A stretch of 46,272 nt of DNA. Origin: Arcobacter sp. Lineage in GTDB: Bacteria; Campylobacterota; Campylobacteria; Campylobacterales; Arcobacteraceae. The notes under the pieces are model-generated. The model searched no databases and had not been told where the DNA came from. It worked only from the letters and a program-made list of their open reading frames with translations. Shown piece by piece: positions 20,517 through 46,272 of the stretch (positions within the stretch are counted from its first letter, which is position 1; each line of letters begins with the position of its first letter). The position numbers were made by a program, and so were the translations under genes. The stretch lies in the NCBI GenBank assembly GCA_002685075.1, contig NYWO01000143.1, forward strand, positions 1 through 46,272, written 5' to 3'.

Positions 20517-20541
20517 ATAAGAAGAGTTTAACTCTTCTTAT
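20517..20541. terminator. Bidirectional terminator between phosphatase and wzc
   Basis: The stem ATAAGAAGAG (20517-20526) with CTCTTCTTAT (20532-20541) has a 5-base loop TTTAA. On the minus strand it is followed by TTATTTTT, a good terminator tail for the wza-wzc unit. The plus-strand tail is T-rich but interrupted. It overlaps the wzc stop codon. Confidence 0.8.
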
Positions 20542-22898: not shown

Positions 22899-22908
22899 AT
22901 TTTTCCTA

Positions 22909-23700
22909 TTAATCTATAAGAGTTTTTCTTTGTACAAATGGATTTAATATACTAGATAGCATACCCCAAAATGGTACTATATCGTTGAATAGTCTATTAT
23001 AACCTTTGATTTCTCCAGGCTGTACATATAATATATCATTTGGTTTTAGATATAGACTTGCCATAGATATCGCATCCATTTTTGTTAGATCTACATTTCT
23101 AATCTCCGGGTCTCTTAAATCCCCTCGGATTACTTTGATATCTGTTCTAGATGCATAATCTGTAAGATCTCCTGATCTTGCTATTGCTTCGATTATATTC
23201 ATAGTTCCATTTGTTACAGATACGATTCCTGGGCTTTTAACTTCACCTATTACAACAACTCTTTGATTTTTAATTTCAACTAAAACATAAGGGTTTCTGA
23301 TATACTTTTTATACTCTTGGATTAACTTATTTGAAGCTTCATCTTGTGTTAATCCTTCGATTTTAAAACTACCAATTAAAGGAAGTCTTACTGTTCCTTT
23401 TTGAGTTACTAGTAATCCTATATTTTCTTGGATATCATTACTTACATTAGTTTCTCTACTTGTAAGCATAGATGTCATTTGCTGTGAACCTTGACCGGCT
23501 TGAATATATACTGTGATATCAACTCTATCATTAGGAGCGATGATATTTTCAAATACAACTTCTTCTTTATATGTATCTTTATCTATAATAGTAGTGCTTT
23601 TTTGCTCTTTCTTATCTGATTGAAAAAGCTTATACTCTTTCATACTACATCCACTAAATATAAGTGCAAACAATACACTTAAAAATATAATTCTTTTCAT
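22909..23700 (-). CDS. wza: Wza-like polysaccharide export lipoprotein
   Basis: A 263-residue outer-membrane lipoprotein with a signal peptide and lipobox IFSGC, acylated Cys at residue 18. A Poly_export domain (about 50-135; NDRVDITVY and GTVRLPLIGSFKIEGLT) is followed by an SLBB domain (about 140-220; VVVIGEVKSPGIVSVTNGTMNIIEAI and LKPNDILYVQPG). It forms the outer-membrane part of the export channel and pairs with Wzc. At 263 residues it is much shorter than E. coli Wza (379), with fewer SLBB domains. The end (DIVPFWGMLSSILNPF) may be a short amphipathic outer-membrane helix. A good AGAGGAAAG ribosome site and a consensus extended -10 lie just upstream. Confidence 0.93.
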   Translation of the reverse strand: MKRIIFLSVLFALIFSGCSMKEYKLFQSDKKEQKSTTIIDKDTYKEEVVFENIIAPNDRVDITVYIQAGQGSQQMTSMLTSRETNVSNDIQENIGLLVTQKGTVRLPLIGSFKIEGLTQDEASNKLIQEYKKYIRNPYVLVEIKNQRVVVIGEVKSPGIVSVTNGTMNIIEAIARSGDLTDYASRTDIKVIRGDLRDPEIRNVDLTKMDAISMASLYLKPNDILYVQPGEIKGYNRLFNDIVPFWGMLSSILNPFVQRKTLID

Positions 23701-27320: not shown

Positions 27321-28498
27321 TTTAAGTATTCCTTCATTTTATTTATCATATTTAATGATTGTTTTTCTATTGTGTTTGTTTGAGCCAACTTAAAAGATGC
27401 TTCTTTTAAATTTTTTACTAGTTCCTTTTCTTCTATTAATCTTAATATATTTTCTTTTATCTCTATTGGAGAGTTTTTATTTACTAGTAAACAGTTCTTT
27501 TCATTTTCTATAATTACAGGAATTGCGCCTGCTCTTGAAGCTATAACTAAACAAGAATTTGCCATGGCTTCCCAAATAGTTCTTGGAAAACCTTCATCTC
27601 CTCTTGTAGCAATGACATAAATATCACTTTGTCTATACATAGAAAAAAGTTCTTCTCCTACTCTTTTTTTACCATGAAATATAAAATTATCTTTAATCCC
27701 TAATTCTAGAACTCTATTTTTTAAATGATTCAAATGAGATTCACCTCTACTATCATCCCAACCTACAAGATTGAAAATAACATCTATATTCTCCTCTTTA
27801 AGCATTTTTGTGGCTATTAAAATATCTTCTATACCTTTAGAAGGTTCAATTCTTCCCGTATAAAGAAGATTGAGTTTATTATCTTTATAAAAATTATCCT
27901 TTTTATAAAAGTTATTTTCACTTAATGTCGTAGTTCTTATTTCATGAGTATTTAGTTTTTTATATTCATCAAAGATAATAGGGTTATTAGTAAATATTAG
28001 TGCATTTTTTGCATTTTTATCTTGATAGTATTTATTATATTTATAAAAAAGATTTAGGACAAATCTCTTATGAGGTTTTATTCCTTTTGTTTCTTTCAAG
28101 TTTTTTACATAATCACCTACTATCAAATATGAATATTTTATATTATTTTTTATACATACATTTGTAATATAAGGTAATAAAGGAGATGGTGTACGCATTA
28201 AAAATATATCTATATCTCTTTTCTTTATATCATTTTCAATAACATTTATAAAATCTTTATTTTTAAGAACTCTTTTAAACATACTAATATGAGGTCCAAT
28301 ATTTACTAGTTCTATATTTAAAGAATTTAATTTATAATCCATCTTTTCAACTTCATTTTTAAGTGGATTATGCATATAACAAATAAGTTTTGTACAATTT
28401 TGTGCTAAACCATCCAAAAAAGTTCCTAAATATCCGGGTAAATATATTCCATCATTTTTTTGTAAAGTAGGAATATGGTAGTGAAATGCTAAAGTCAT
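27317..28498 (-). CDS. Family 4 glycosyltransferase
   Basis: A 393-residue GT-B enzyme. The N-terminal half is divergent (MTLAFHYHIPTLQKNDGIYLPGYLGTFLD), with RTPSPLLPYI in the middle. The C-terminal domain is typical: LNLLYTGRIEPSKGIEDIL, VIFNLVGWDDSRGE, NFIFHGKKRVGEELFSMYRQSD and GFPRTIWEAMANSCLVIASRAG, where E(x7)E-like spacing is replaced by a looser form. It should add a sugar in the cytoplasm. It overlaps both neighbours by 4 bases, so it is part of a coupled string with the Wzy-like gene before it and the acyltransferase after it. Confidence 0.87.
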   Translation of the reverse strand: MTLAFHYHIPTLQKNDGIYLPGYLGTFLDGLAQNCTKLICYMHNPLKNEVEKMDYKLNSLNIELVNIGPHISMFKRVLKNKDFINVIENDIKKRDIDIFLMRTPSPLLPYITNVCIKNNIKYSYLIVGDYVKNLKETKGIKPHKRFVLNLFYKYNKYYQDKNAKNALIFTNNPIIFDEYKKLNTHEIRTTTLSENNFYKKDNFYKDNKLNLLYTGRIEPSKGIEDILIATKMLKEENIDVIFNLVGWDDSRGESHLNHLKNRVLELGIKDNFIFHGKKRVGEELFSMYRQSDIYVIATRGDEGFPRTIWEAMANSCLVIASRAGAIPVIIENEKNCLLVNKNSPIEIKENILRLIEEKELVKNLKEASFKLAQTNTIEKQSLNMINKMKEYLK

Positions 28499-29760
28499 GT
28501 GATTTCCTTTTTATTGTCAATTATTGCCATAGTTAGACCTAATAAAATCCAAAACTTAGCTCCTTGTATTGTTACTAGAATAAATCCATAAATAATTAAG
28601 GATAAAAATGAAACAAAAATAAATAGTTTAACTTGATCTTTTATTACTATCAAGTATTTAAGTCCATATATAATAAGTATTATAAAAATTAATAATAAGA
28701 AGAAACTTGTAATAATTCCAGTTTCTGTAATAATTTTTAGGTATGTGTTTTGAGATGAAACTTTATTGTATCTTTCTTCACCTCTTTTTAGCCAATGACT
28801 AGCTTGTGTCATATCTAAATCAACAGAATAGTAAGTAAAATTACCAATACCAATTCCTAAGAAAGGATGCTCTTCAAAAATTTGTTCACCTTTTTGTATC
28901 ATTAGCTTTCTTATTAAAAAAGACTTGTCTCTTTCTAATACATTTTGTTCAAGTCTTAGAGTATATGCAAACTTTGGACTTATGTCTTCAACTATGTCTG
29001 ATATTTCATATTTGATATTTTTAATATCCTCTTTTTGTAAATCAACAATAGAATAAGTTAAATATACTAAAGGTACAACAAGTAATATAAAGAAAACTGA
29101 TACTATTCGAACTTTACTATTATTAATATAGATTAATAAAACTAGTTCAAATAAAACTAAAGCTAAACCCGTTCTAGATTCAGACCAAAAAATACCTAGT
29201 AAAATAAATGAAATAACTAATACTAGTTGAGTATTTGAAAACTTTTTTATCATATAATAAAAGGCTAAAGGTAAAGCTAATACTATAGTAAATGCAAATT
29301 CATTAGGATAAAAAACTACATAAAATCTGTTTATCGTTATATAGTAAAGTGTAGATACTACAACTGCATAAAATACAAATTTTGATATCTCTAGATAATC
29401 ATATTTTTCTATCCATGTTTTTATATGTAAAGCAACTATAACCCAATATATATACTGTATAGTTAGCTTAAATAATGAAAAATAACTTCTATCTCTTGCA
29501 GTTTCTTCTGCAAATAGAGATGATAAAATTAAGAAAAATAAAAAAGTTAATAATATTATATCAGTTTTAGTTTCTATTTTAAATATCTTAATCTTATTTT
29601 TTATTAAAATATAACAATAAGCAATAAAAATAAAAAATGTTATTGAAATTCCAGCAATTTTTATTAAAGGAAATAAACTAAAAAATACAAACCAATTAAG
29701 ATATTTTTGATTTGATTTTAAAAGTTCCTCCGTTTTATTTATTTGCATAGTTTTTTTCAT
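28495..29760 (-). CDS. wzy: Wzy/WaaL-family polymerase or ligase
   Basis: A 421-residue integral membrane protein with about 11-12 hydrophobic segments. A long periplasmic loop (about 245-330) contains HPFLGIGIGNFTYYSVD and SSQNTYLKIITETGI, the Wzy_C/O-antigen ligase signature, with SESRTGLAL before it. In this locus, with a Wzx flippase, Wza and Wzc and no other candidate, the Wzy polymerase role is most likely; a ligase cannot be excluded from sequence. The annotated ATG overlaps the neighbouring transferase by 26 bases; a second ATG four codons in (29748) would cut this to 14 and is equally plausible. Confidence 0.82.
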   Translation of the reverse strand: MKKTMQINKTEELLKSNQKYLNWFVFFSLFPLIKIAGISITFFIFIAYCYILIKNKIKIFKIETKTDIILLTFLFFLILSSLFAEETARDRSYFSLFKLTIQYIYWVIVALHIKTWIEKYDYLEISKFVFYAVVVSTLYYITINRFYVVFYPNEFAFTIVLALPLAFYYMIKKFSNTQLVLVISFILLGIFWSESRTGLALVLFELVLLIYINNSKVRIVSVFFILLVVPLVYLTYSIVDLQKEDIKNIKYEISDIVEDISPKFAYTLRLEQNVLERDKSFLIRKLMIQKGEQIFEEHPFLGIGIGNFTYYSVDLDMTQASHWLKRGEERYNKVSSQNTYLKIITETGIITSFFLLLIFIILIIYGLKYLIVIKDQVKLFIFVSFLSLIIYGFILVTIQGAKFWILLGLTMAIIDNKKEIT

Positions 29761-34227: not shown

Positions 34228-35697
34228 TTATTTCTTTCCTCTTTTTAATTTTTTTAATACCATTGGAAATATTTCAATCTTAAGATTTTCAAATGATTTA
34301 GTTTTGAATAAAATATTAATTAGAAAATACATTACTACAAAAATAGATAACTTTATAATTAGTGAAACAATCAAATATAAATCAAACTCTAAAAAGTTAA
34401 ATATACCTTTGACAGTTATTACTGAAATTATAACTATAAAGATTTGTATTAATATTGGTTTAGCAAAATCAAAAAAACTCAAACTAATCTCTTTTGAAGC
34501 AAAAAGTATATTTAAGCTAACACCTAAAAAAGAACAAACTATTAAACCATATAAAAATACTGTAACACCATAATAATATAAAACCAAAAAATTAACTGAT
34601 AAAATCAGTTTCTTTAGTATTTCTAATCTTAAAAATGCTTTTGAATTTCCTCTACTACTTAAGATATTTACTAATAATGCACTTAAAGGCAAAGAAAAAC
34701 CACTTAAAGCAAGTATTTGAAATATATCAACAGAGGGCTCCCATTTGCTACCAAAAAGTATCAATATCAATTCATAAGAAACCAAATATAAACTTCCTAA
34801 AAGTAAAAAGACTACAAAACTAAGTATAGACAAGCCTTTTAAAACAACATTTTGAAACCTTGGCAAATCATTTTGTATAGAACTTAAAACAGGAAAAAGA
34901 ACACTCATCAAACTTTGAGAAGAATATTTTGTAACCAAAAGATTTAAAGACTTTGCTCTTTGGAAAAAACCTAATGCTGTAGCATCAAAAAGTTTACCAA
35001 TAATTAAATAATCAAGTCTAGTAAATATGGCATCTATAAGACTAGATAGAAACATTCTAAATCCATAAGCCCATAATTGCATAAGTGCTTTAATTGAAAA
35101 ACTAAAATTTGGCTTCCATGAACTTTTATACCAAATAATAGTACTGAAAAATAGCGCTTTTGATAAAGTAAGAATTGCTAAACTCCAAACTCCTAATCCA
35201 TAAAAAGCAGAAGAAACTGCTAAAATAGCACTTAACACTGATGATTGTAGTTCAGTTTGTGTTAAGAGTTTATAGTTTAATACTTTTCTTAATCTAACTC
35301 TTTGAATACTTGATATAGCATTTAATAAAAAAGACAAAGACAAAACTTGTACCAATGGTACTAAATCATTATTATTATAAAAATTTGCTATATGAGGTGC
35401 TGATAAATATATTATTAAAGTTAAAAATAATGCTATAAAAATATTAAAATAAAAAACAGAACTATAATGAATATCTAAAGTTCTTCTTCTTTGTATCAAA
35501 GCTCCACCTAAACCCATCTCTGTAAATATTCCAGCCATTCCTACAACAACCATAACCATAGCAACCATACCAAAATCAGAAGGTTCAAGTAATCTAGCTA
35601 AAAAGATCATAACAATAATATTAAGACCATTTTTGGCTAATTTGCCTAAAAAATCCCAAGCAAAGGCTCTAGTTCCTTTTGATTTTAGTTCACTCAT
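34228..35697 (-). CDS. wzx: Wzx-type lipid-linked oligosaccharide flippase
   Basis: A 489-residue polytopic protein of the MATE/MOP flippase superfamily (WzxC/RfbX subgroup). It opens with SKGTRAFAWDFLGKLAKNGLNIIVMIFLARLLEPSDFGMVAMV, typical of this subgroup, and has about 12-14 hydrophobic helices. Conserved patches include GGALIQRR and LDYLIIGKLFDATALGFFQRA. It moves undecaprenyl-diphosphate-linked repeat units across the inner membrane for polymerisation. Found between the sugar-nucleotide cassette and the transferases, which is where Wzx genes usually lie. Full length. A 12-base gap follows the acetyltransferase gene. Confidence 0.93.
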   Translation of the reverse strand: MSELKSKGTRAFAWDFLGKLAKNGLNIIVMIFLARLLEPSDFGMVAMVMVVVGMAGIFTEMGLGGALIQRRRTLDIHYSSVFYFNIFIALFLTLIIYLSAPHIANFYNNNDLVPLVQVLSLSFLLNAISSIQRVRLRKVLNYKLLTQTELQSSVLSAILAVSSAFYGLGVWSLAILTLSKALFFSTIIWYKSSWKPNFSFSIKALMQLWAYGFRMFLSSLIDAIFTRLDYLIIGKLFDATALGFFQRAKSLNLLVTKYSSQSLMSVLFPVLSSIQNDLPRFQNVVLKGLSILSFVVFLLLGSLYLVSYELILILFGSKWEPSVDIFQILALSGFSLPLSALLVNILSSRGNSKAFLRLEILKKLILSVNFLVLYYYGVTVFLYGLIVCSFLGVSLNILFASKEISLSFFDFAKPILIQIFIVIISVITVKGIFNFLEFDLYLIVSLIIKLSIFVVMYFLINILFKTKSFENLKIEIFPMVLKKLKRGKK

Positions 35698-35709
35698 TTA
35701 AATATCTTT

Positions 35710-36336
35710 CTAAAATTCATTAAAATCTGTATCATATTTTTTACAAAACTCATCAATATTTTCTAGTCTTAAATCTTCAATTCTTTTTTCAAGTTGTTCT
35801 CTAGACCAATTCCACCAAGAGATTTTTAATAAAGACTTTATTATATTCTCCCTAAAACGCTTCTTTACAACTCTGCCAGGATTACCAACAATAATTGAGT
35901 AATCTTCTACATCTTTTGTTACAATAGTACCACCACCAATTACAACACCATTTCCAATTTTACAACCAGGCATTATTAATACATTTTGTCCGATCCAAAC
36001 ATCATTTCCAATTGTAACTTTCTGTTCTTTTCTATAATCAAAAAAGTTTTGATCATTATTTCCTAATCCATAGTCCATAGATCTATATGTAAAGTTTGCC
36101 ATTGCAGGTCTCCAATAAGGATGATTACCAGGATTAATTCTTACAAAGGGAGCAATAGCACAAAATTTTCCAACAGTTGTATAAATCATTTCAGAATCAT
36201 GCAAAATATAAGAGTAATCTCCTAGATAAGAATCAGTTACCCTTCCCCTTTCATCAACATATGTATATACACCAAAATCACTATTTCTTACTTTTGCTGT
36301 GTCATGTATTATTACACCATTAGGATCATATTTCAT
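35710..36336 (-). CDS. Hexapeptide acetyltransferase, XAT/phosphonate-associated type
   Basis: A 208-residue left-handed beta-helix enzyme. Family marks are GKFCAIAPFVRINPGNHPYWRP with the catalytic His in GNHP, NFTYRSMDYGLG, VTIGNDVWIGQNVLIMPGCKIGNGVVIGGG and the closing IIVGNPGRVVKKRF. The FCAIAP..RINPGNHP plus FTYRS and FFDYRK combination reminds me of the hexapeptide proteins found next to phosphonate genes, as well as of CatB-like xenobiotic acetyltransferases. In this locus it more likely acylates a sugar amine or hydroxyl. It overlaps the PrpD-like gene by 4 bases, forming the end of a coupled four-gene cassette. Confidence 0.83.
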   Translation of the reverse strand: MKYDPNGVIIHDTAKVRNSDFGVYTYVDERGRVTDSYLGDYSYILHDSEMIYTTVGKFCAIAPFVRINPGNHPYWRPAMANFTYRSMDYGLGNNDQNFFDYRKEQKVTIGNDVWIGQNVLIMPGCKIGNGVVIGGGTIVTKDVEDYSIIVGNPGRVVKKRFRENIIKSLLKISWWNWSREQLEKRIEDLRLENIDEFCKKYDTDFNEF

Positions 36337-37712
36337 TTACAACTCCTCAAAATAGACATTATTTCACTATAAGTATTATCATTAGTACCTAACTTTATTA
36401 CTAAGTCTAATATTTTTGTTTGTTTATCTTTAGATAATATATTCTTACTTAAATCAATAAACTTTAACGATAAGTTTTCTAAGTCCATTGGTCGTTTTGC
36501 ATGTCCTTTTGGATATACACATTCTCCTTGATAAACACTCTTATCCTTTAGAATAATTTTAACAATATCTGGTCTCCAATCATTTTCACCATCTATCCAG
36601 TCTTCATGTTCATCAAAATCTATTAAACTTATTAATGACAATAATTCTTTATCAACAACTAAATTATCAGTAAACATAGAAGGAGTAACCTTTTTAAACT
36701 TTAAAGCACATGACAAGACAAAAGGCATACAGAATTTACCTTCTAAGCCTTTATTTGGATATTTATAAAACAAAACTTTTGTAGCCCGAGGTGGAACTCT
36801 ACAAATAACTTTTTCAATCAATGAAGTATCAATATTATTTAAAGATAATAGTTCTAACATAATATCGAGCGATCTATGTGTCAAAGCACAACATGGATAT
36901 CTCTTAAAATTTAACCCAAATTTATTAATTGCCAAAGGATGTTTCCACGGTTTTATTAATTCAGTATAGTTTACTTCATCTTTTCCAAAGATACTTGTTA
37001 AAAAACTTTTATTTTTATCATCTAAAATATTTATAGAAGAAGTAAAATTATTTTGAGCTAATTTAACTGCTTGAACAGCATTAGAAGAGGCTTTCCCTAT
37101 ATGAAAAGGTTTTGTCATTGAACCAAAGTTACATACCAACCCAGAAGACATTGATGTTGCTAAACCGATTGCATAAGCCATTTTATCCTTATTCAGTTTT
37201 AATAAATATGAAACTGAAACAGTCGCAGCTACAATTCCTATTACAGAAGAAGGATGCCATCCTTTAAGATGTAATTTTGGTAAAGCTCTTGAAAGTTTAG
37301 ACATAACTTCTACTCCTATTACATATGAACTAATAATATCTTTATCATTAGTTTTTTCATCCATAAAAGCCCAAATAGTTGACCAAATAATAGCACTTGG
37401 ATGCCCTTGTGTTGAAGCACCAGTATCATCTAAGTCTAACGCATGAGATGATGTTCCATTTAATAATGCTGCTATTTCTGGAGTAGAGCTAAAAGGAGTA
37501 CCTAAAATAGGTATTCCTTCTGTCTCTTTAAACTTTAAGTATGTTTTTTGTAATATTTTAGAACATTCTTCATCAGCCCCTGCAAGTGTTACTGCAAGAG
37601 TATCGATAAAAGACATTTGTACTACGTTTATAATATCTTTACCTAAATTTTCAAACTTAAACTCTGTTACAAATTCTAATAAATTCGATAAAATATTAAT
37701 TTCTTTATTCAT
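36333..37712 (-). CDS. MmgE/PrpD-family protein (dehydratase/decarboxylase-like)
   Basis: A 459-residue member of the MmgE/PrpD family, which includes 2-methylcitrate dehydratase and cis-aconitate decarboxylase. Seen are DTLAVTLAGADEECS (about 34-48), the active-site region HALDLDDTGASTQGHPSAI (about 94-112), LKGWHPSSVIGIVAATVSVS (about 148-167), and the C-terminal-domain motif KRYPCCALTHRSLDIMLEL. Length fits the family. No propionate genes (prpB, prpC, acnD) are nearby; instead it sits between an ATP-grasp ligase and an acetyltransferase, overlapping both. A role in making an acid that decorates the polymer is inferred; the real substrate is unknown. Confidence 0.85.
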   Translation of the reverse strand: MNKEINILSNLLEFVTEFKFENLGKDIINVVQMSFIDTLAVTLAGADEECSKILQKTYLKFKETEGIPILGTPFSSTPEIAALLNGTSSHALDLDDTGASTQGHPSAIIWSTIWAFMDEKTNDKDIISSYVIGVEVMSKLSRALPKLHLKGWHPSSVIGIVAATVSVSYLLKLNKDKMAYAIGLATSMSSGLVCNFGSMTKPFHIGKASSNAVQAVKLAQNNFTSSINILDDKNKSFLTSIFGKDEVNYTELIKPWKHPLAINKFGLNFKRYPCCALTHRSLDIMLELLSLNNIDTSLIEKVICRVPPRATKVLFYKYPNKGLEGKFCMPFVLSCALKFKKVTPSMFTDNLVVDKELLSLISLIDFDEHEDWIDGENDWRPDIVKIILKDKSVYQGECVYPKGHAKRPMDLENLSLKFIDLSKNILSKDKQTKILDLVIKLGTNDNTYSEIMSILRSCK

Positions 37713-38820
37713 TTATTTTTAATTCTTTATTTTCTTTAAGTTTATTAACATTTTCTAGTGAGATTACATTACTAGATAAACTTTTACCAATCACAAATTC
37801 ACTACTATTTAAGCCATCTTTATGAATTGGAAACTCTTTATCTTTAAATAAATTATTAATCATCAAACCTAAATCATCTTGTCCCATTAAAAACCTAGGA
37901 TATGTGTTACCATTAGTTCTCATATTCATTTCTTGTGCTTTATAAAATCCATTTACATCTTTTCTTAATTGAACAGTAATTGGTCCATATCCACCTTCTT
38001 TAAATACTGCTTCGGCATATCTCTTAGTAATTGATTCTAATTCTTCATCATATACTCTTTTAAATCCAACTGTCACTCCATTTTCATGCTCATTTCTTGA
38101 AATAAAAACTTCGTCAATTGAACCATCAGGAGAAATTATTGTATGACAAGAGTGATGAAAAATATTTGGAGCACTTGTAAATAATGGTACATTCTCTGAA
38201 TATTGCTCAAAATACTTTTTTAACTTCTCCCCATCACCTAAATACTCCTGAACCATATAGTTTTCATACTCAACTACTCTCATTGCTTCCTCTTCATTTC
38301 TTGCAAAAACTACACCTTTAGAAGCAAACCCTTCAATTGGTTTAGCAATTAAAGGAAATGAGTGTTTATCAATAAAATCTTTAAAATCTTTAATATCACC
38401 AGTTTTACCTAAAACAAATGTATCTGCGAATGGTAAACTATTTCTTTGGCAAAACTCCCAAGTCTTTAATTTATTTAATGCTGCTTGTATAGTTTTTATA
38501 TTACCATAAGGTAATCTTCCTGGTAATTCAGGATTGTCTAACATTAGTTTTGCCAATGCTTCAGTATCTTCATCTCTTCCACTTAATATTAAATCTGGTT
38601 TTTCTACTTTAATGATTTCTATCATTTTATCAACAAATTCACTTTCTGCAGTATTAGGAAGTAAATAACATTTATCACATCTAAAATTCATAGGATTTAA
38701 TGCAATACTATTTGTACCTATAATCGTCACTAAGTCTCGCCGATAACATTTCTCACTTTCTAAAACATCAAGAATGTTTTGCCCAACAAGACTACCTATA
38801 CTACTAACTAAAATTTTCAT
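37705..38820 (-). CDS. CarB-like ATP-grasp ligase
   Basis: A 371-residue protein. The N-terminal pre-ATP-grasp Rossmann domain (KILVSSIGSLVGQNILDVL; NFRCDKCYLLPNT) is followed by the ATP-grasp domain (about 105-320) with FPLIAKPIEGFASKGVVFARN (nucleotide-binding Lys and glycine loop), YMVQEYLGDGEKL (adenine hinge) and KAQEMNMRTNGNTYPRF (Mg2+-binding Glu and Asn). Such enzymes join a carboxylate to an amine or similar through an acyl-phosphate. Placed between a sugar aminotransferase (4-base overlap) and the PrpD-like gene (8-base overlap), it could amide-link an acid or amino acid to the amino sugar. Substrates are inferred only. Confidence 0.85.
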   Translation of the reverse strand: MKILVSSIGSLVGQNILDVLESEKCYRRDLVTIIGTNSIALNPMNFRCDKCYLLPNTAESEFVDKMIEIIKVEKPDLILSGRDEDTEALAKLMLDNPELPGRLPYGNIKTIQAALNKLKTWEFCQRNSLPFADTFVLGKTGDIKDFKDFIDKHSFPLIAKPIEGFASKGVVFARNEEEAMRVVEYENYMVQEYLGDGEKLKKYFEQYSENVPLFTSAPNIFHHSCHTIISPDGSIDEVFISRNEHENGVTVGFKRVYDEELESITKRYAEAVFKEGGYGPITVQLRKDVNGFYKAQEMNMRTNGNTYPRFLMGQDDLGLMINNLFKDKEFPIHKDGLNSSEFVIGKSLSSNVISLENVNKLKENKELKINE

Positions 38821-39908
38821 AATTTTCTCCTTATAATTTGGTTAATTTTTTTTTGTTTATCTTCTACTAAATTAGGATAGCAAGGTAAACAAAGTATTTT
38901 TCTACTTATATCTCTTGATACTTTGCATTCTTGTTTTGGCTCAATATAATCCAAAGTATCAAGTGATGGATAAAAGTATCTTCTTGGAAATATATTTTCA
39001 TCATTTAAAGCTTTTTGTACTTTTAAAAGTTCTTCTTCACTCTTTAAAACTATTGGAAAATAGCTATTATTTAACTCTACATTTTCATCAATATCTTGAA
39101 ACTTTACATATCCCTCAAGCTCAGATGTATAAGTGTCTACTACTTTTTTTCTACCTTGCTTTATATTTTCTATTTCATCTAGTACGCATAGTCCCATAGC
39201 TGCTTCAAACTCATTCATTTTTGCATTTGTTCCAAGTTCTGGAATTGACTCTGCATTTTGAATACCAAAATTTATAAGATATCTAGCTTTTTGAACTAGT
39301 TCATCATCATTTATGATTAAAGCTCCACCTTCAATAGTATGAAAAAGTTTAGTAGCGTGAAAACTCAAAGTTGATATATCACCATAGTTTAATACACTTT
39401 CACCTTTGTACTTTACATCAAAAGCATGAGCTGCATCATAAACAACTTTTAGGTCATGTTTTTCTGCTATCTCATTTATTTTTTCTACATCACAAGGATT
39501 ACCAAATACATGTACAGGAACAATTGCTGAAGTATTTTTAGTGATACTATCTTCTATTTTTTCAGCATCTATATTATATGTATCTTTATTTATATCTACA
39601 AAAATAGGTTTAATACCATTTGTTACAAGTGAACTTGTAGTCGCTACAAATGAAAATGGTGTAGTTATAGCAAAATCTTTTATTCCTAGTGTTCTATATG
39701 CTATTTCAAGAGCAACTGTACCATTTGATACTAATATAACATTTTTAACACCTAGATAATTAGCAAGTCTTTTTTCTAGTTCTTGGAGCTTTGGACCATT
39801 GTTTGTTATCCAAGAACTTTCAAATATCTCATTAACATATTTTTGATACTTCTCTTTACTTGGCATATATGTTTTTGTCACGTGAGTAGGTCCATTATTT
39901 TGCATCAT
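38817..39908 (-). CDS. DegT/DnrJ/EryC1/StrS sugar aminotransferase
   Basis: A 363-residue PLP enzyme. Motifs are SSWITNNGPKLQELEKRLANYLG, VSNGTVALEIAYRTL (phosphate grip), TPFSFVATTSSLVTNGIKPIFVD, VVYDAAHAFDVKY (the Asp that contacts the PLP nitrogen) and LSFHATKLFHTIEGGAL, where Lys is the Schiff-base residue. Downstream of rfbA and rfbB, its natural substrate is dTDP-4-keto-6-deoxyglucose. The product would then be a dTDP-4-amino-4,6-dideoxyhexose (VioA-like), though a 3-amino product would need a ketoisomerase that is not present here. Tandem ATGs (39908, 39905) overlap the end of rfbB. Confidence 0.9.
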   Translation of the reverse strand: MMQNNGPTHVTKTYMPSKEKYQKYVNEIFESSWITNNGPKLQELEKRLANYLGVKNVILVSNGTVALEIAYRTLGIKDFAITTPFSFVATTSSLVTNGIKPIFVDINKDTYNIDAEKIEDSITKNTSAIVPVHVFGNPCDVEKINEIAEKHDLKVVYDAAHAFDVKYKGESVLNYGDISTLSFHATKLFHTIEGGALIINDDELVQKARYLINFGIQNAESIPELGTNAKMNEFEAAMGLCVLDEIENIKQGRKKVVDTYTSELEGYVKFQDIDENVELNNSYFPIVLKSEEELLKVQKALNDENIFPRRYFYPSLDTLDYIEPKQECKVSRDISRKILCLPCYPNLVEDKQKKINQIIRRKL

Positions 39909-40929
39909 ACTTCCCTAAATACCAATCCACAGTCAATACAATTCCTGTATCAAAGTTCTCATCCGCTTTCCAACCAAGTTCATCTTCAAGCTTTGTTGCA
40001 TCAATTGCATATCTTCTATCATGTCCTGCTCTATCTTCTACAAAGGTAATTAATTCTTTATATGATTTTAGAGTTTTTGATGGAACTTTTTCATCTAAGA
40101 TTGTACAGATTGCATCTACTATTTGTAAATTTGTTCTTTCATTTCTTCCACCAATATTATATGTATTTGCTGTCTTTCCTGTATGATAAACAATATCTAT
40201 ACCTTTACAGTGATCAAGTACATATAACCAATCTCTAATATTTTTCCCATCACCATAGATTGGAATTGGATTTCCTTTTAGAGCATTTCTTATAATTGTA
40301 GGAATTAGTTTTTCATCATGTTGTTTTGGTCCATAGTTATTTGAACAGTTTGTAATAACACAGTTCATACCAAATGTTTCCACATAAGATCTGATGATCA
40401 TATCACTTGATGCTTTCGAAGCTGAATATGGAGAGTTAGGAGCATAAGGAGTTGATTCTGTAAATAAATCTTTTGGATTATCACTTAGTGTTCCATATAC
40501 TTCATCTGTACTTATATGATGAAATCTACAATTATTATAATCATCTTTATATTCAAATGGTTTATTCATCCAATATTTTTTAGCAACATCTACTAAAGTA
40601 TATGTGCCATTTACATTTGTTTGTACAAATACTCCTGGGTTTTTAATAGAGTTATCTACATGTGATTCTGCTGCAAAGTGAATTACACCTTTTATATCAT
40701 ATTCAGTAAATATAAACTCTATTAGTTCTCTATTACAGATGTCACCTTTTATGAATTTATATCTTGGATTATCTTCACACTCTTTTAGGTTTTCTAGGTT
40801 CCCTGCATATGTTAATAAATCTATATTTACTATAGTTATATCTTTATGAGTATCTAGAAAGTATGGTACAAAGTTTGCACCTATGAATCCTGCACATCCT
40901 GTTACTAGTATTGTTTTACGACTCAGCAT
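39895..40929 (-). CDS. rfbB: dTDP-glucose 4,6-dehydratase
   Basis: A 344-residue extended short-chain dehydrogenase. It has the NAD+-binding VTGCAGFIGANFV, the NIDLLTYAGNLENLKE region specific for dTDP-glucose dehydratases, HISTDEVYGTL with the catalytic Thr-Asp-Glu, and YSASKASSD with the YxxxK pair. It makes dTDP-4-keto-6-deoxyglucose from dTDP-glucose. It lies 45 bases after rfbA; I see no promoter, gene or repeat in that gap. There is no rfbC or rfbD in the window, so the product is probably aminated by the neighbouring DegT enzyme instead of becoming dTDP-rhamnose. Confidence 0.96.
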   Translation of the reverse strand: MLSRKTILVTGCAGFIGANFVPYFLDTHKDITIVNIDLLTYAGNLENLKECEDNPRYKFIKGDICNRELIEFIFTEYDIKGVIHFAAESHVDNSIKNPGVFVQTNVNGTYTLVDVAKKYWMNKPFEYKDDYNNCRFHHISTDEVYGTLSDNPKDLFTESTPYAPNSPYSASKASSDMIIRSYVETFGMNCVITNCSNNYGPKQHDEKLIPTIIRNALKGNPIPIYGDGKNIRDWLYVLDHCKGIDIVYHTGKTANTYNIGGRNERTNLQIVDAICTILDEKVPSKTLKSYKELITFVEDRAGHDRRYAIDATKLEDELGWKADENFDTGIVLTVDWYLGKYDAK

Positions 40930-40974: not shown

Positions 40975-41850
40975 TTAAACATTTTCATCTCTTATCAAAT
41001 CTAATAAATATTGACCATATCCATTTTTAGAAAGTGGTTTAGCTATTTCTAATACTTTTTCTTTAGTAATCCAACCTTTAGAATATGCTATTTCTTCAAG
41101 ACAAGCTATTTTATATCCTTGTCTATGCTCTATAGTTTGTACAAATTGTCCAGCTTCTATTAAGCTATCATGAGTACCTGTATCAAGCCATGCAAAACCA
41201 CGACCTAAAAGTTCTACTTTTAGATTACCCCTTTTTAGGTATTCTTCATTTACAGTTGTGATTTCTAACTCACCTCTATGTGATGGTTTTACATTTTTAG
41301 CTATTTCTACAACACTGTTATCATAAAAATATAATCCCGTTACAGCATAGTTAGATTTTGGGTTAGTTGGTTTTTCTTCTATACTTATTGCTTTTCTATT
41401 TCTATCAAACTCTACAACTCCAAATCTTTCAGGATCTTTTACTTGATATCCAAATACTACAGCACCATCTTTTATTGAAGCCGCATTTTCAAGCATAAGT
41501 CTAAAACCTTGACCATAAAAAACATTATCACCAAGAACTAAACATACACTGTCGTTTCCAATAAACTCTTCACCTAATATAAAAGCTTGTGCAAGACCAT
41601 CAGGACTAGGTTGTACTTTATATTCTAGTTTTATACCCCAATCGCTACCATCACCCAAAAGTTCTTTAAACTTATTATTATCTTCGGGTGTTGTAATAAT
41701 TAAAATTTCTTTAATACCTGCTAACATTAAAACAGATAATGGATAAAAAATCATTGGTTTATCATATATTGGAAGTAATTGTTTAGACGTACTTCTTGTG
41801 ATAGGATAAAGTCTTGTTCCACTTCCTCCAGCTAATATTATACCTTTCAT
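40975..41850 (-). CDS. rfbA: Glucose-1-phosphate thymidylyltransferase
   Basis: A 291-residue nucleotidyltransferase. The N-terminal [32 protein letters not shown] is the classic RmlA signature, followed by [13 protein letters not shown] (metal-binding Asp), [11 protein letters not shown], and [22 protein letters not shown]. It makes dTDP-glucose from dTTP and glucose-1-phosphate, the first step of the dTDP-sugar branch. It overlaps kdsA by 4 bases, so Kdo and dTDP-sugar genes share one transcript. Length is standard; no oddities. Confidence 0.97.
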
Positions 41851-42632
41851 TTTATACTCTCTAAAATATCTCTAAAATCTTTTAAATAAACCATATTAGG
41901 TCCATCACTTAAAGCCTCTTCTGGGTTTTCATGTACTTCAAAGAAAAAGCCATCTACACCAACTGCATTTGCTAGTTTTGCCATGTATGGAGCATATTTT
42001 CTATCTCCACCACTTGTACCACCTAAAGCACTTGGTTTTTGAGTAGAGTGCGTTACATCCATAACTACAGGATATCCAAACTCTTTCATATCTATAATTT
42101 GTCTAAAATCAACTACTAAGTTTCCAAGACCAAACATACTACCTCTTTCAGTAAGCATAATCTTATTATTACCTGATTCTTTTACTTTATTTACAGGATG
42201 AATCATATCTTTACCATCTAAAAACTGTGCTTTTTTGATATTTATTATTCTGTCTGTTTTAGCAGCTTCTACTAAAAGATCTGTTTGCCTACAAAGAAAA
42301 GCTGGTATTTGAAGTATGTCTACTACTTCAGCTACTGGTTTTGCTTGATTTGGTTCATGAATATCAGTTGTAAGAGGAAGATTAAACTCTTTTTTTACTC
42401 TTTCAAGTATTCTAAGGCCTTCTTCAAGTCCTGGACCTCTATAGCTACTTATAGATGTTCTATTTGCTTTGTCAAAACTAGCTTTAAAAATATATGTGAA
42501 ACCTAACTCTTCTGTTAACTTTTTGATATTTTCAGCTAAATTCATAATCATAGATTCATTTTCTATAACACATGGTCCTGAAAGTATAAACTTTCTTTCT
42601 TTTAATTTTTGGTAAAGCTCTTCATTATCCAT
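41847..42632 (-). CDS. kdsA: 3-deoxy-D-manno-octulosonate-8-phosphate synthase (metal-dependent class)
   Basis: A 261-residue TIM-barrel enzyme that condenses arabinose-5-phosphate and phosphoenolpyruvate to Kdo-8-phosphate. The motif [11 protein letters not shown] places Cys21 where E. coli KdsA has Asn, so this is the metal-dependent class known from Aquifex and Helicobacter. Also seen are [12 protein letters not shown], the TTDIHEP loop, [39 protein letters not shown] and [14 protein letters not shown]. It overlaps kdsC by 8 bases. The + strand open frame at 42285-42506 is a shadow. Confidence 0.96.
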
Positions 42633-43176
42633 TTATATCAACCTTTTTACTATCATTTATAAGTTTTTCTAAAAGATTTTGTGAATCAAGTACAAAATCA
42701 GCTATATCTCTAAAAACACCTTCTCCACCTTTTGAAGAAGTTACAATATCTACATTCTCTTTTATATATTCTCTAGCATCTGCTGGAGTTGCACTTAAAC
42801 CACAACGAACTAATATAGACAAATCTATAATATCATCACCTATATATGCTATTTGTGAATCTTCTAAGTTATACTCTTTTTTAAAATTTGTATACTCAAC
42901 TAACTTATCTTTCACTCCATGTTTATGAAAGTTAAGTTTTAGCTCATTACATCTGTTTTTTACAACATCTGATTCTCTACCTGTGATAGCAGCAACTACA
43001 AAACCAAGTCTTTTTAGATGAGATATTATTTGACCATCTTTTACATTGTATCTTTTATACTCTAGTCCTGAATCATCATAGATAATCCCTCCATCAGTCA
43101 TAACTCCATCTATATCAAAAATTATAGCTTTAATATTTTGTGCTTTTTGTTTACAATTATCTTTTTTAAATATCAT
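42625..43176 (-). CDS. kdsC: Kdo-8-phosphate phosphatase
   Basis: A 183-residue HAD-family phosphatase without a large cap, as in the tetrameric KdsC/YrbI group. [20 protein letters not shown] carries the nucleophile Asp21 and general acid Asp23; [15 protein letters not shown] holds motif II; and [26 protein letters not shown] carries the motif IV acidic pair. It removes phosphate from Kdo-8-phosphate. Neighbours kdsA and kdsB overlap it by 8 bases and 1 base, so the pathway enzymes are coupled. Two Cys near the N-terminus (NCKQ) are not part of the fold core. Confidence 0.94.
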
Positions 43177-43922
43177 TATAAAAGCTCCAATGCTTTGTGA
43201 TAGTCTTCAATAGTATCTATTCCTATTGAGTTATAGTCTGTTTCTATCATCTTTATCTTGTAACCATTTTCTATTACTCTTAGTTGCTCTAGTTTTTCTA
43301 CTCTTTCTAAATATGTTTGTTCCATATTTGAGTATGTCTTTATAAAGTCCTTTGTGTATGCATAAATACCAAGATGTCTATAAAACTTCAAAGGTTCAGG
43401 AACTTTTACATGATGATTTATTAAAGCATCCCATTTGTCCCTATGATAAGGAATAATTGATCTTGAAAAATATATAGCATTAGAATTTTTATCAATATTA
43501 ACTTTCACTACATTTGAGTTTTTTAAATCTTCTACTAATTCTATTTTATGCATAGCACTTGCCATAGTAGTATTTTCATCAAATGAATTCGCTAATTCTT
43601 CTATAAGTTCTATATCAATAAATGGTTCATCACCTTGTACATTTATAACGATATCACAGTCTATATTTTCAACTGCTTCTGCTATTCTATCTGTACCTGA
43701 TTCATGAGTATCTTTTGTCATAATTATATTTTTTGTAAAAGGTTCACAAATATTTTTTACTTTTTGATTATCAGTTGCTATAAATACTTCATCAATATTT
43801 TTAGCTTGAATACATCTTTCATAAACTCTTTGAACAACTGTTTTACCTTTTAAATCAAGGATTACTTTATTTGGAAGTCTCGAAGAGTTCAGTCTTGCAG
43901 GTATAACTATAACTTTCTTCAT
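43176..43922 (-). CDS. kdsB: CMP-Kdo synthetase
   Basis: A 248-residue cytidylyltransferase that activates Kdo with CTP. Seen are VIPARLNSSRLPNKVILDLKGK (the P-loop-like CTP site), VFIATDNQKV, SGTDRIAEAV, VINVQGDEPFID (metal Asp) and YRHLGIYAYTKDFI, then the C-terminal dimer part LEQLRVIENGYKIKMIETD. The product CMP-Kdo feeds lipid A-core assembly and, in some bacteria, capsules. It abuts kdsD with no gap. Length agrees with the family. Confidence 0.96.
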   Translation of the reverse strand: MKKVIVIPARLNSSRLPNKVILDLKGKTVVQRVYERCIQAKNIDEVFIATDNQKVKNICEPFTKNIIMTKDTHESGTDRIAEAVENIDCDIVINVQGDEPFIDIELIEELANSFDENTTMASAMHKIELVEDLKNSNVVKVNIDKNSNAIYFSRSIIPYHRDKWDALINHHVKVPEPLKFYRHLGIYAYTKDFIKTYSNMEQTYLERVEKLEQLRVIENGYKIKMIETDYNSIGIDTIEDYHKALELL

Positions 43923-44870
43923 TTATATACCTAAATCATACATTTGAACTACACCAACAAAATTAAGTTCATCATCTATAACCAAAAGTGAATTTACTTT
44001 ATTTTGATTCATGATATCACTTGCTACTGTTAGTTTTTCATTTTTATTTATTGTTTTAGGATTTTTGCTCATAAGGTCATCTGCATTTAATGAAAAGAAA
44101 TTGTCTTCACTACTTTCCATAGCTCTTCTTATATCACCATCTGTTATTACGCCAGCTATTTTACTATCTTCTAAAACTACTACAAGACCACACTTACCAT
44201 CTGTAATTTTATGAATCACTTCTTTTATGTTTATATCTTTTGAAGAAATAGGAAGATTATCTTTTTTCATAACATTTTCTACTTTTGTAAGTAGTCTTCT
44301 TCCTAAACTACCACCCGGATGAAACTGAGCAAAATCTTTATCTTGAAAATCTCTTAGTTTCATTAAAGCAACTGCAATAGCATCACCCATAACCAAAGTT
44401 GCTGTAGTAGAACTTGTAGGTGCAAGTTGTAAAGGACAAGCTTCTTTTTCTACTGCTACATTTAGATGATAGTTTGTATTTTGTGCTAAAGTAGAGTTTG
44501 GTTTTCCTGTCATAGATATAGTAATATTTTCTTGATTTTTTAAAAATGGAATAAGTTTTAAAACTTCATCTGTTTCACCTGAATTTGATATAAGTAAAAT
44601 AATATCATCTTTTTCAATCATTCCTAAATCACCATGATAAGCCTCACCAGGATGTAAGAAAAAACTAGGTGTTCCAGTACTAGCTAATGTTGCAGCTATT
44701 TTTTTACCTATTATTCCTGATTTTCCCATACCTGAAATGATAAACTTACCTGTAGTATTAAGTACAGCATTTATACTTTGCTCAAAATCATCACTTAAAA
44801 GATTTGATAAACTTGCTATTTCTTTTGCTTCTATTTCAAAAACTTCTTTTGCTATACTTAATGTGTTCAT
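43923..44870 (-). CDS. kdsD: Arabinose-5-phosphate isomerase (SIS + two CBS domains)
   Basis: A 315-residue enzyme that converts ribulose-5-phosphate to arabinose-5-phosphate, the first step to Kdo. The SIS domain (about 35-170) has KFIISGMGKSGIIGKKIAATL, SFFLHPGEAYHGDLGMI, LISNSGETDEVLKLI and ACPLQLAPTSSTTATLVMGDA; the linker has FHPGGSLGRRLL. Two CBS domains follow (about 205-315), including GKCGLVVVLEDSKIAGVITDGDIRRAM. This is the KdsD/KpsF/GutQ type; a KpsF name would suit a capsule role. It overlaps the dehydrogenase gene by 1 base. Confidence 0.95.
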   Translation of the reverse strand: MNTLSIAKEVFEIEAKEIASLSNLLSDDFEQSINAVLNTTGKFIISGMGKSGIIGKKIAATLASTGTPSFFLHPGEAYHGDLGMIEKDDIILLISNSGETDEVLKLIPFLKNQENITISMTGKPNSTLAQNTNYHLNVAVEKEACPLQLAPTSSTTATLVMGDAIAVALMKLRDFQDKDFAQFHPGGSLGRRLLTKVENVMKKDNLPISSKDINIKEVIHKITDGKCGLVVVLEDSKIAGVITDGDIRRAMESSEDNFFSLNADDLMSKNPKTINKNEKLTVASDIMNQNKVNSLLVIDDELNFVGVVQMYDLGI

Positions 44871-46120
44871 TACAACCTACCATCACTATTTTTTAGAATA
44901 GATTTAATATCATAAACTACTTGATTCTTATTTGAAAATTCTAATACTTTATATTTATCATGAGAAACAGCCATAACTATAGCTTCATAATCATCATAGT
45001 TCACATCATTATCAAGATTTAAGTTATATTCATGTTTTACTTCATCTTTATCAGCCCAATAGTCACTTACTGTAATATCACAACCAAACTCTTGTAGTTC
45101 TTCTATTACATCAATAACTCTAGAGTTTCTAATATCAGGACAATTTTCTTTAAAAGTAATTCCAAGTACTAGTACTTTTGAACCTTCTATTTTATGACCT
45201 TTTTTAATCATAAGTTTAATAACTTGATTAGCTACATAAATACCCATATTATCATTTAGTCTTCTACCTGCTAAAATAATCTCCGGGTTATATCCAATTT
45301 GTTGTGCTTTATGTGTTAAGTAGTATGGATCTACACCAATACAATGTCCACCTACAAGTCCAGGCTTAAACTTTAAGAAGTTCCACTTTGTTCCTGCCGC
45401 ATCTAATACATCATTTGTATTAATACCAAGCTTATTAAAAATAATTGACAGTTCATTTACAAATGCAATATTTATATCTCTTTGAGAATTTTCTATTACC
45501 TTTGCAGCTTCTGCTACTTTAATAGTAGGTGCAAGATGAGTACCTGCAGTAATAATACTTGCATAAAGTTCATCTACTTTTTTTCCTATTTCAGGAGTTG
45601 AACCTGCTGTTACTTTTAATATCTTTGTAACTGTATGTTCTTTATCACCTGGATTTATTCTTTCAGGAGAGTATCCACAAAAGAAATCTTCATTAAATTT
45701 TAAGTTAGAGAACTTTTCTAGTACTGGTACACACTCTTCTTCTGTTGCACCTGGATACACTGTAGATTCATAGATAACGATATCATCTTTTTTAAGAACC
45801 TTACCAATAGTTTCACTAGCTTTTATTAAAGGAGTTAAATCTGGTCTTTTATTTTTATCAATAGGAGTTGGAACTGTAACGATATAAACATTACAATCTT
45901 TGATATCTTCTATATTACAAGTAAATTTGATATTATTATCAATAGCTTCTTGAAGTTGAGCTTCATTTAATTCTAGTGTTCTATCATAAGCACGAGATAA
46001 TTCATCTATTCTTGTTTGATAAATATCTAATCCAACAACATTATATTTTAAAGAGAAAGCATGAGCCAATGGTAATCCAACATATCCTAATCCAATTATA
46101 CAAATCTTACTGTTTTTCAT
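44870..46120 (-). CDS. UDP-N-acetylhexosamine 6-dehydrogenase (WbpO/TviB-like)
   Basis: A UDP-sugar dehydrogenase of 416 residues with the start chosen here. It has KICIIGLGYVGLPLAHAFSLKYNVVGLD (NAD+ site), VPTPID, YSPERINPGD, NSQRDINIAFVNELS, GLVGGHCIGVDPYYL with the catalytic Cys, and LGITFKENCPDIRNSRV. These fit the WbpA/WbpO/TviB branch, which oxidises UDP-GlcNAc or UDP-GalNAc to the uronic acid. An ATG eight codons upstream (46144) would overlap the 4-epimerase stop by 23 bases; the ATG at 46120 has AAAGGA at 46136-46131 (minus strand) and leaves a 1-base gap, so I prefer it. It pairs with the 4-epimerase gene to give UDP-GalNAcA. Confidence 0.93.
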   Translation of the reverse strand: MKNSKICIIGLGYVGLPLAHAFSLKYNVVGLDIYQTRIDELSRAYDRTLELNEAQLQEAIDNNIKFTCNIEDIKDCNVYIVTVPTPIDKNKRPDLTPLIKASETIGKVLKKDDIVIYESTVYPGATEEECVPVLEKFSNLKFNEDFFCGYSPERINPGDKEHTVTKILKVTAGSTPEIGKKVDELYASIITAGTHLAPTIKVAEAAKVIENSQRDINIAFVNELSIIFNKLGINTNDVLDAAGTKWNFLKFKPGLVGGHCIGVDPYYLTHKAQQIGYNPEIILAGRRLNDNMGIYVANQVIKLMIKKGHKIEGSKVLVLGITFKENCPDIRNSRVIDVIEELQEFGCDITVSDYWADKDEVKHEYNLNLDNDVNYDDYEAIVMAVSHDKYKVLEFSNKNQVVYDIKSILKNSDGRL

Positions 46121-46121
46121 T

Positions 46122-46272
46122 TTACTTATTTCCTTTAATATCATTTATATACCACTCTAGTGATTCTTTTAAACCTTCTTCTAGGTTATGTGTTGGTTCA
46201 TATCCTAGAAGTTCTTTTGCTTGATCTATATTCGCATTTGAGTGTCTTATATCTCCAGCTCTAAAATCTCTA
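46122..46272 (-). CDS. UDP-N-acetylglucosamine 4-epimerase, C-terminal end only (WbpP/TviC-like)
   Basis: The last 49 residues of a gene that runs off the window, ending at a TAA (46124-46122, minus strand). They start RDFRAGDIRHSNANIDQAKE and go on with LLGYEPTHNLEEGLKESLEW, closely matching the C-terminus of the WbpP/TviC/WbgU epimerases, where FRxGDVRHSxADIxKA is conserved. Such enzymes interconvert UDP-GlcNAc and UDP-GalNAc. Adjacent to a WbpO/TviB-like dehydrogenase, it implies a UDP-GalNAcA supply like that of Vi antigen or Pseudomonas O6. It lies too close to the edge to be detected as a full open frame. Confidence 0.85.
   Translation of the reverse strand, partial: RDFRAGDIRHSNANIDQAKELLGYEPTHNLEEGLKESLEWYINDIKGNK

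What the first reader, a model, noticed from the sequence alone, without database searches (positions are those of the whole stretch)
36333..39908. Coupled aminotransferase / ATP-grasp / PrpD-like / hexapeptide cassette: possible new amino-sugar acylation route
Four genes read as one unit with overlaps of 4, 8 and 4 bases: DegT aminotransferase, CarB-like ATP-grasp ligase, MmgE/PrpD protein, hexapeptide acetyltransferase (the last starts at 36336 and ends at 35710). Families are clear from motifs. PrpD-family enzymes are known to dehydrate or decarboxylate tricarboxylates, and ATP-grasp enzymes form amides through acyl-phosphates. I infer that the PrpD-like enzyme makes or trims a small carboxylic acid, and the ligase attaches it to the 4-amino group of a dTDP-4-amino-4,6-dideoxyhexose. 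I know of no described pathway with this set.
Basis: partly seen in the sequence, partly recalled or inferred. Interest (0 to 1): 0.72.

Follow-up and report, generated by a model that had tools for sequence, protein, structure and literature searches.

The report
Capsule sugar acylation module with PrpD
A capsule gene cluster of a bacterium that looks related to Arcobacter carries a set of genes that probably makes an amino sugar and decorates it with a small acid, using an unusual pair of enzymes not seen together in the relatives that were looked at.

Summary
The four overlapping genes are real and uninterrupted, with overlaps of 4, 8 and 4 bases. They lie in a Wza/Wzc/Wzx/Wzy-type locus right after rmlA and rmlB.
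The DegT enzyme is VioA-like: 43-47% identical to three E. coli homologues, two annotated VioA. No RmlC was found in the incomplete genome. dTDP-Qui4N is the likely intermediate.
New evidence: 17 other genomes among 104 of the family carry this DegT at 65-75% identity. The gene after it is swapped: ATP-grasp 4, WbqC-like 3, hexapeptide transferase 2, ketosynthase 1, other 5, of 15 with a following gene. These ATP-grasps fall into at least two lineages, both remote from the window's. An ATP-grasp ligase acting on Qui4N is therefore well supported.
New variant of a known kind.

The parts
40975..41850 (-). RmlA, glucose-1-phosphate thymidylyltransferase
   Evidence: Pfam NTP_transferase 6e-79; RmlA hits at 78-87% precede RmlB-DegT in several relatives
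39895..40929 (-). RmlB, dTDP-glucose 4,6-dehydratase; overlaps DegT by 14 bases
   Evidence: Pfam GDP_Man_Dehyd 4.7e-86; RmlB directly precedes DegT in 12 of 17 relative loci
38817..39908 (-). VioA-like sugar aminotransferase (DegT), predicted to make dTDP-4-amino-4,6-dideoxyglucose (dTDP-Qui4N)
   Evidence: Pfam 7.6e-98; 43-47% identical to three E. coli homologues, two annotated VioA; 65-75% to 17 genomes of the same family
37705..38820 (-). CarB-like ATP-grasp ligase, predicted to acylate the 4-amino group
   Evidence: NCBIfam PRK12767 113 bits, below cut-off; profile of 8 sequences matches 2pn1 'carbamoylphosphate synthase large subunit' E 2e-43; K117, K160, Q191, Q284, R286, N299, R301 invariant in the 8 aligned
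36333..37712 (-). MmgE/PrpD-fold enzyme, predicted to supply or epimerise the acid
35710..36336 (-). XAT/CatB-type hexapeptide acyltransferase, perhaps acetylating the acyl group or a sugar hydroxyl
   Evidence: TIGR03308 235.8 bits, cut-off 201.65; Vat, CatB and ApmA models match below their cut-offs; nearest solved structures are CatB/Vat acetyltransferases
34228..35697 (-). Wzx-type flippase next to the module (context)
   Evidence: Pfam Polysacc_synt_3 2.9e-81
28495..29760 (-). Wzy-type polymerase/ligase (context)
   Evidence: Pfam Wzy_C 4.6e-17
20538..23700 (-). Wzc-type kinase (20538-22898) and Wza-type exporter (22909-23700) (context)
   Evidence: Pfam Wzz/GNVR/AAA_31 and Poly_export/SLBB
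41847..46144 (-). KdsA, KdsC-like phosphatase, KdsB, KdsD and UDP-glucose dehydrogenase genes (context)
   Evidence: Pfam; the Kds names are assigned from the domain set and order (recalled)

Best explanation
The unit is a dTDP-Qui4N N-acylation module of a capsule locus. RmlA, RmlB and the VioA-like DegT make dTDP-4-amino-4,6-dideoxyglucose. The ATP-grasp ligase activates a small carboxylic acid as an acyl phosphate and joins it to the 4-amino group. The MmgE/PrpD-fold enzyme next to it prepares that acid by proton abstraction or addition beside a carboxylate (epimerisation, hydration/dehydration or decarboxylation of a di- or tricarboxylate), so that the ligase gets a non-standard acid or stereoisomer. 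A plausible but unproven product is an N-malyl or N-aspartyl type Qui4N. The hexapeptide enzyme may then acetylate the acyl group. Shown by sequence: gene order, families, kept key residues, and recurrence of ATP-grasp genes after this DegT in relatives. Inferred: the amide bond, the acid, and the roles of the PrpD-like and hexapeptide enzymes.
Against: No second example of ATP-grasp + PrpD was found: 0 of 17 DegT loci hold PrpD and 0 of 80 PrpD loci hold DegT or ATP-grasp hits, so the functional link of PrpD rests on one locus. The ATP-grasp is remote from every relative found (30% identity or less). The PrpD-like enzyme lacks both tyrosines that were proposed as second catalytic bases. The 17 relatives are not independent samples. 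In 5 of 15 relatives the gene after DegT is not an obvious acylation gene, and the function of WbqC proteins (3 of 15) is not established here. Of three E. coli loci looked at, the gene after DegT is acyltransferase-like in two and a glycosyltransferase in one. Six other remote ATP-grasp relatives do not lie beside a DegT gene within the short stretches read. No enzyme was assayed, and the ATP-grasp could not be folded.
Confidence: 0.5

Rival explanations
1. Amino-acid version: the ATP-grasp attaches an amino acid to Qui4N, the PrpD-like enzyme racemises or epimerises it, and the hexapeptide enzyme N-acetylates it, giving for example an N-acetyl-alanyl or N-acetyl-aspartyl Qui4N.
For: 4-(N-acetyl-D-alanyl)amino-4,6-dideoxy-D-glucose is a known polysaccharide component and N-acetylglycyl Qui4N is known (PMC3210612). 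The closest single PDB hit to the ATP-grasp is an L-amino acid ligase (3vot, E 1e-5). The hexapeptide enzyme also matches the aminocyclitol N-acetyltransferase ApmA model (68.6 bits, far below its cut-off of 550). Iminodisuccinate epimerase interconverts stereoisomers of iminodisuccinate (PMC7347537).
Against: No amino-acid racemase is known to me with this fold (recalled). The hexapeptide enzyme is closest to O-acetyltransferases CatB/Vat.
Confidence: 0.25
2. The PrpD-like gene has nothing to do with the sugar: a metabolic gene caught in the operon. The ATP-grasp alone acylates Qui4N with an ordinary metabolite.
For: PrpD is absent from all 17 related DegT stretches, five of which carry an ATP-grasp without it. 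The window PrpD is a long orphan branch.
Against: It is tightly coupled on both sides (overlaps of 8 and 4 bases), has a composition like the locus, is uninterrupted, and keeps most active-site residues.
Confidence: 0.17
3. The ATP-grasp acts elsewhere (for instance on a uronic acid or another glycan part) and Qui4N is N-acetylated by the hexapeptide enzyme, as by VioB.
For: Hexapeptide transferases follow this DegT in L138 and L145, and a PglD-type one follows the DegT homologue of one E. coli strain (L108).
Against: The window enzyme has no PglD_N match and no Pfam match beyond hexapeptide-type repeats. It is CatB/Vat-like. ATP-grasp genes recur next to this DegT.
Confidence: 0.15

Closest known systems
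Viosamine (dTDP-Qui4N) pathway with VioA and VioB
   Same: RmlA, RmlB and a VioA-like aminotransferase
   Different: No VioB/PglD-type N-acetyltransferase follows; an ATP-grasp ligase, a PrpD-like enzyme and a CatB-type transferase stand in its place
VioA-like DegT + ATP-grasp modules in family relatives L135, L137, L139, L141, L150
   Same: ATP-grasp gene directly after (L150: second after) the same DegT
   Different: ATP-grasps of other lineages; neighbours are methyltransferase, oxidoreductase, sulfotransferase, MBOAT or glycosyltransferase-type genes instead of PrpD
Iminodisuccinate epimerase (2HP0/2HP3) and cis-aconitate decarboxylases (6R6U, 7BR9, 7BRA)
   Different: 27% identity to the epimerase; the second-base tyrosines are absent; found in a capsule locus
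2-Methylcitrate dehydratase PrpD/MmgE
   Different: NCBIfam scores 30-44 bits against cut-offs of 458-950

Membership tests
dTDP-Qui4N (viosamine) pathway | RmlA and RmlB plus a VioA-like DegT aminotransferase together | tested here: met
   12 of 17 relatives have RmlB directly before this DegT
dTDP-Qui4N (viosamine) pathway | Product is dTDP-4-amino-4,6-dideoxy-D-glucose, not the galacto isomer | not testable with these tools
   Homology only. Curated aminotransferase equivalog cut-offs were not reached (DesI 258.6 of 650, dTDP-4-amino-4,6-dideoxygalactose transaminase 208.3 of 375)
dTDP-Qui4N (viosamine) pathway | VioB/PglD-type N-acetyltransferase beside VioA | tested here: not met
   Hexapeptide protein lacks a PglD_N match; NeuD/PglB/VioB model 44 bits, cut-off 160.8
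PRK12767 CarB-like ATP-grasp | Curated score cut-off | tested here: not met
   113 bits against 218 for the best of five models
ATP-grasp superfamily | Conserved residues of the aligned relatives, nucleotide and metal sites among them (site assignment recalled) | tested here: met
   K117, K160, Q191, Q284, R286, N299, R301 invariant in 8 sequences; RimK model just over cut-off
MmgE/PrpD superfamily | Both Pfam domains above gathering score, and the fold | tested here: met
2-methylcitrate dehydratase | NCBIfam equivalog cut-off | tested here: not met
   43.6/575, 32.2/950, 30.3/458 bits
Iminodisuccinate epimerase | His99 and Tyr145, the two proposed bases (PMC7347537) | tested here: not met
   His kept as His104; no Tyr at the place of Tyr145, the loop is one residue shorter. 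30 of 38 aligned family members have a Tyr there, 8 including the window do not
Mammalian-type cis-aconitate decarboxylase | His277 and Tyr318, important for human IRG1 (PMC7347537) | tested here: not met
   Cys275 and Val313 stand opposite, by counting in the alignment, whose printed human chain (12vt) itself shows Ala at the place of Tyr318. The B. subtilis protein named IRG1 also lacks both, per the same paper
TIGR03308 hexapeptide transferase | Model cut-off | tested here: met
   235.8 bits, cut-off 201.65
TIGR03308 hexapeptide transferase | Lies in a phosphonate C-P lyase operon (recalled) | not tested
   None of the window proteins scanned matched such a family, but no search for phn genes was made

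The most novel reading that the evidence does not exclude
An MmgE/PrpD-fold enzyme with an altered active site, missing both proposed second-base tyrosines, works as a dedicated acid-making or epimerising enzyme in capsule biosynthesis, feeding an ATP-grasp ligase that puts the acid on dTDP-Qui4N. This would be the first polysaccharide role for this fold that I know of, within a slot behind VioA into which different bacteria of the family plug different N-acylation enzymes.
Probability: 0.4. Interest if true: 0.65.

Novelty: new variant of a known kind. Interest (0 to 1): 0.5.

Why it matters
N-acyl groups on surface amino sugars help set antigen type and phage binding (general knowledge), yet few enzymes other than CoA-dependent transferases are known to place them (recalled). 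If true, the locus gives a CoA-free route to an unusual acyl group and a new job for the MmgE/PrpD fold. The comparison also turns a single odd operon into a testable rule: the gene behind VioA in this bacterial family predicts the acyl chemistry.

Tried and rejected
Search for a second ATP-grasp + PrpD pair: PrpD in 100 relatives (4 with a match at E<=1e-20, own included) and 397 genomes of the phylum (37 with a match at E<=1e-30, own included, 34 of them in one family). ATP-grasp in 397 genomes of the phylum (only the own genome, E<=1e-25), 18 genomes by handle (0, E<=1e-10), 321 of the class of G443 (0, E<=1e-18), 200 of the phylum of G444 (0, E<=1e-14), 104 of the family (own plus 3 remote, E<=1e-8), 148 and 149 of two further phyla (2 and 2 remote, E<=1e-10). 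Thresholds differed, so the empty answers are not equal. The G444 search overlaps in some genomes. Plasmids: 634 records with PrpD (none at 60% identity or more) and 68 with ATP-grasp. Of these I fetched four; the ORFs of L024 and L025 were read, L022 and L023 were only compared by tblastn. Phages and viral contigs were asked for the ATP-grasp only and gave nothing.

Genome contigs: the single-sequence scan found no relative. So 'pair not found' is not 'pair absent'.

Tree of 128 PrpD proteins: the window protein is a long branch. Its join with L043_11m is flagged as long-branch attraction, and I do not use it.

Literature: searches gave no paper in the rows shown on an ATP-grasp + PrpD polysaccharide pathway; some searches showed only 20 of 47, 20 of 118 and 15 of 27 papers. 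Seen: listings for all; passages only for PMC7347537, PMC11167607, PMC2147049, PMC3210612 and PMC4431377. PMC11167607, PMC2147049 and PMC4431377 did not help. Subscription journals are mostly not covered.

Itaconate as the acyl group: not excluded, but the places of Tyr318 and His277 of human IRG1 differ. Rhamnose as the fate of the dTDP sugar: unlikely, no RmlC, though the genome is only 86.5% complete. In my first script on the active site I had placed Tyr318 in the wrong column; the recount puts it opposite Val313, made to see a wild-type human chain, did not print one.
Full report
OBSERVATION. The window is one contig of a 2.68 Mb assembly, 86.5% complete. The four genes are present and uninterrupted: DegT 38817-39908, ATP-grasp 37705-38820, MmgE/PrpD 36333-37712, hexapeptide 35710-36336, all minus strand, overlapping by 4, 8 and 4 bases. 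RmlB overlaps DegT by 14 bases, and RmlA lies before it. Downstream follow a Wzx-type flippase, glycosyltransferases, a Wzy-type protein, and Wza and Wzc proteins; upstream lie Kdo-pathway genes and UDP-glucose dehydrogenase. I read this as a Wzx/Wzy-type capsule locus. The composition of the four genes is within the range of the locus.

THE SUGAR. The DegT protein is 43-47% identical to three E. coli homologues, two of which are annotated VioA (DNA 66-69% over the matched parts in the ten rows shown of 150 records). It does not reach curated cut-offs of narrower aminotransferase models such as DesI, so the product rests on VioA homology. No RmlC was found in the own genome, while the same family search rings in 11 of 14 control genomes. 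dTDP-4-keto-6-deoxyglucose therefore most likely goes to dTDP-Qui4N.

THE SLOT BEHIND VioA. I searched the DegT protein in 104 held genomes of the family: 18 match at E<=1e-70, the own one included, the others at 65-75% identity. I fetched stretches around all 17 others. RmlB lies directly before DegT in 12 of 17. In 15 of 17 an ORF of at least 90 codons follows within the stretch; in L140 and L151 none does. The follower is an ATP-grasp in 4 (L135, L137, L139, L141), WbqC-like in 3 (L143 by Pfam, L144 and L149 by visible likeness of the N-terminus), a hexapeptide transferase in 2 (L138, L145; in L145 with an AMP-ligase next), ketosynthase III in 1 (L142), Wzy-type in 3 (L136 by Pfam, L147 and L148 by visible likeness), a CDP-glycerol transferase type in 1 (L150, with an ATP-grasp as the next gene), and not assigned in 1 (L146). 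A profile of the window ATP-grasp and seven remote relatives, made without these loci, finds exactly five ATP-grasp ORFs among 252, and four of the five stand directly behind DegT. The hypergeometric chance is 5e-5, or 7e-4 if the two most similar loci are counted once. This takes ORFs as exchangeable and the loci as independent, which is only roughly true. The five ATP-grasps fall into at least two lineages, L135/L137/L150 at 38-67% to each other and L139/L141 at 25%, and the window's is a third, at about 22-23% to all over the aligned parts (to L141 only E 0.008). Repeated recruitment of different ATP-grasp ligases to the same place is the strongest evidence here that the window's ATP-grasp acylates the product of VioA. 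Two remote relatives outside the family also lie beside a DegT gene: L024 directly after it, and L116 with a WbqC-family gene between. Other remote relatives do not: L110, L111, L112, L113, L114 and L115 lie beside phosphoesterase, epimerase, PHP, methyltransferase or glycosyltransferase-type genes, by my reading of the ORFs in short stretches, and L025 beside PHP- and epimerase-type genes. In three E. coli loci with a related DegT the next gene is acyltransferase-like in two (L107, L108) and a glycosyltransferase in one (L109).

THE ATP-GRASP ITSELF. It has no close relative in anything searched (see Tried and rejected). It keeps the residues invariant in eight aligned sequences and carries about 22 extra residues after position 195. 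Best solved relative by profile is 2pn1, named carbamoylphosphate synthase large subunit; by single sequence, an L-amino acid ligase (3vot, E 1e-5). I could not fold it.

WHAT ACID. Not known. Qui4N in nature carries formyl, acetyl, N-acetylglycyl, N-acetyl-D-alanyl, 3-hydroxybutyryl and 3-hydroxy-3-methylbutyryl groups. L- and D-malic acid are amide-linked to other amino sugars of marine bacteria, the D form partly O-acetylated, and Qui3N carries a dimethyl-hydroxy-oxopyrrolidine carboxylic acid (PMC3210612, passages). A ligase, an enzyme that sets configuration beside a carboxylate, and an acetyltransferase would fit an O-acetylated malyl or an N-acetylated aspartyl group. That is a suggestion only.

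PAIR NOT SEEN ELSEWHERE. PrpD is absent from all 17 related stretches (tblastn down to E 10 gives only two short chance pieces; no phmmer hit at E<=1e-3). None of the 80 genome contigs PrpD loci has a DegT or ATP-grasp hit. Sampling was incomplete, so this lowers but does not remove the claim that the pair is a unit.

VERDICT. Observation confirmed. The N-acylation reading is supported for the ATP-grasp by comparison and plausible but unproven for PrpD. The system is a new variant of a known kind (dTDP-Qui4N N-acylation), with a partner enzyme that my searches have not seen in such a place.

Noticed in passing
7518-19715 (+): A 4065-residue open frame made of bacterial Ig and cadherin-like repeats (Big_9 ten stretches, Cadherin_5 nine), probably a giant surface adhesin, with a response regulator gene just before it on the other strand.
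   Followed up: partly
L135-L151 (17 family relatives): The gene behind the VioA-like DegT differs between relatives: ATP-grasp, WbqC-like, hexapeptide, ketosynthase III and others. It looks like a swappable acylation slot that could predict capsule chemistry.
   Followed up: yes
L116:1078-3575 and L143:8977-11416: WbqC-family genes lie directly between or after DegT and acylation-type genes (DegT-WbqC-ATP-grasp; DegT-WbqC-hexapeptide), which hints at a role of the WbqC family in amino-sugar acylation.
   Followed up: partly
L139:3258-6404: DegT is followed by an ATP-grasp with a weak L-amino acid ligase C-terminal match (below cut-off), a protein that looks aminotransferase-like to me but has no Pfam match, and a sulfotransferase: a possible further unusual acyl group.
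   Followed up: no
L002:1420-4221 and L003:1447-4248: In two family relatives another PrpD-like gene pairs with an aspartase/fumarase-like gene, perhaps an iminodisuccinate-type degradation pair.
   Followed up: no
L005-L021: One family of the same order (f10) accounts for 34 of the 37 genomes with a PrpD match. The 16 of its proteins that entered the tree form one starred group far from the window protein.
   Followed up: no
26802-27320 (-): A second hexapeptide acetyltransferase in the same capsule locus (WcaF/WbbJ-like, below cut-off), so O-acetylation of the polysaccharide need not come from the module's own transferase.
   Followed up: no
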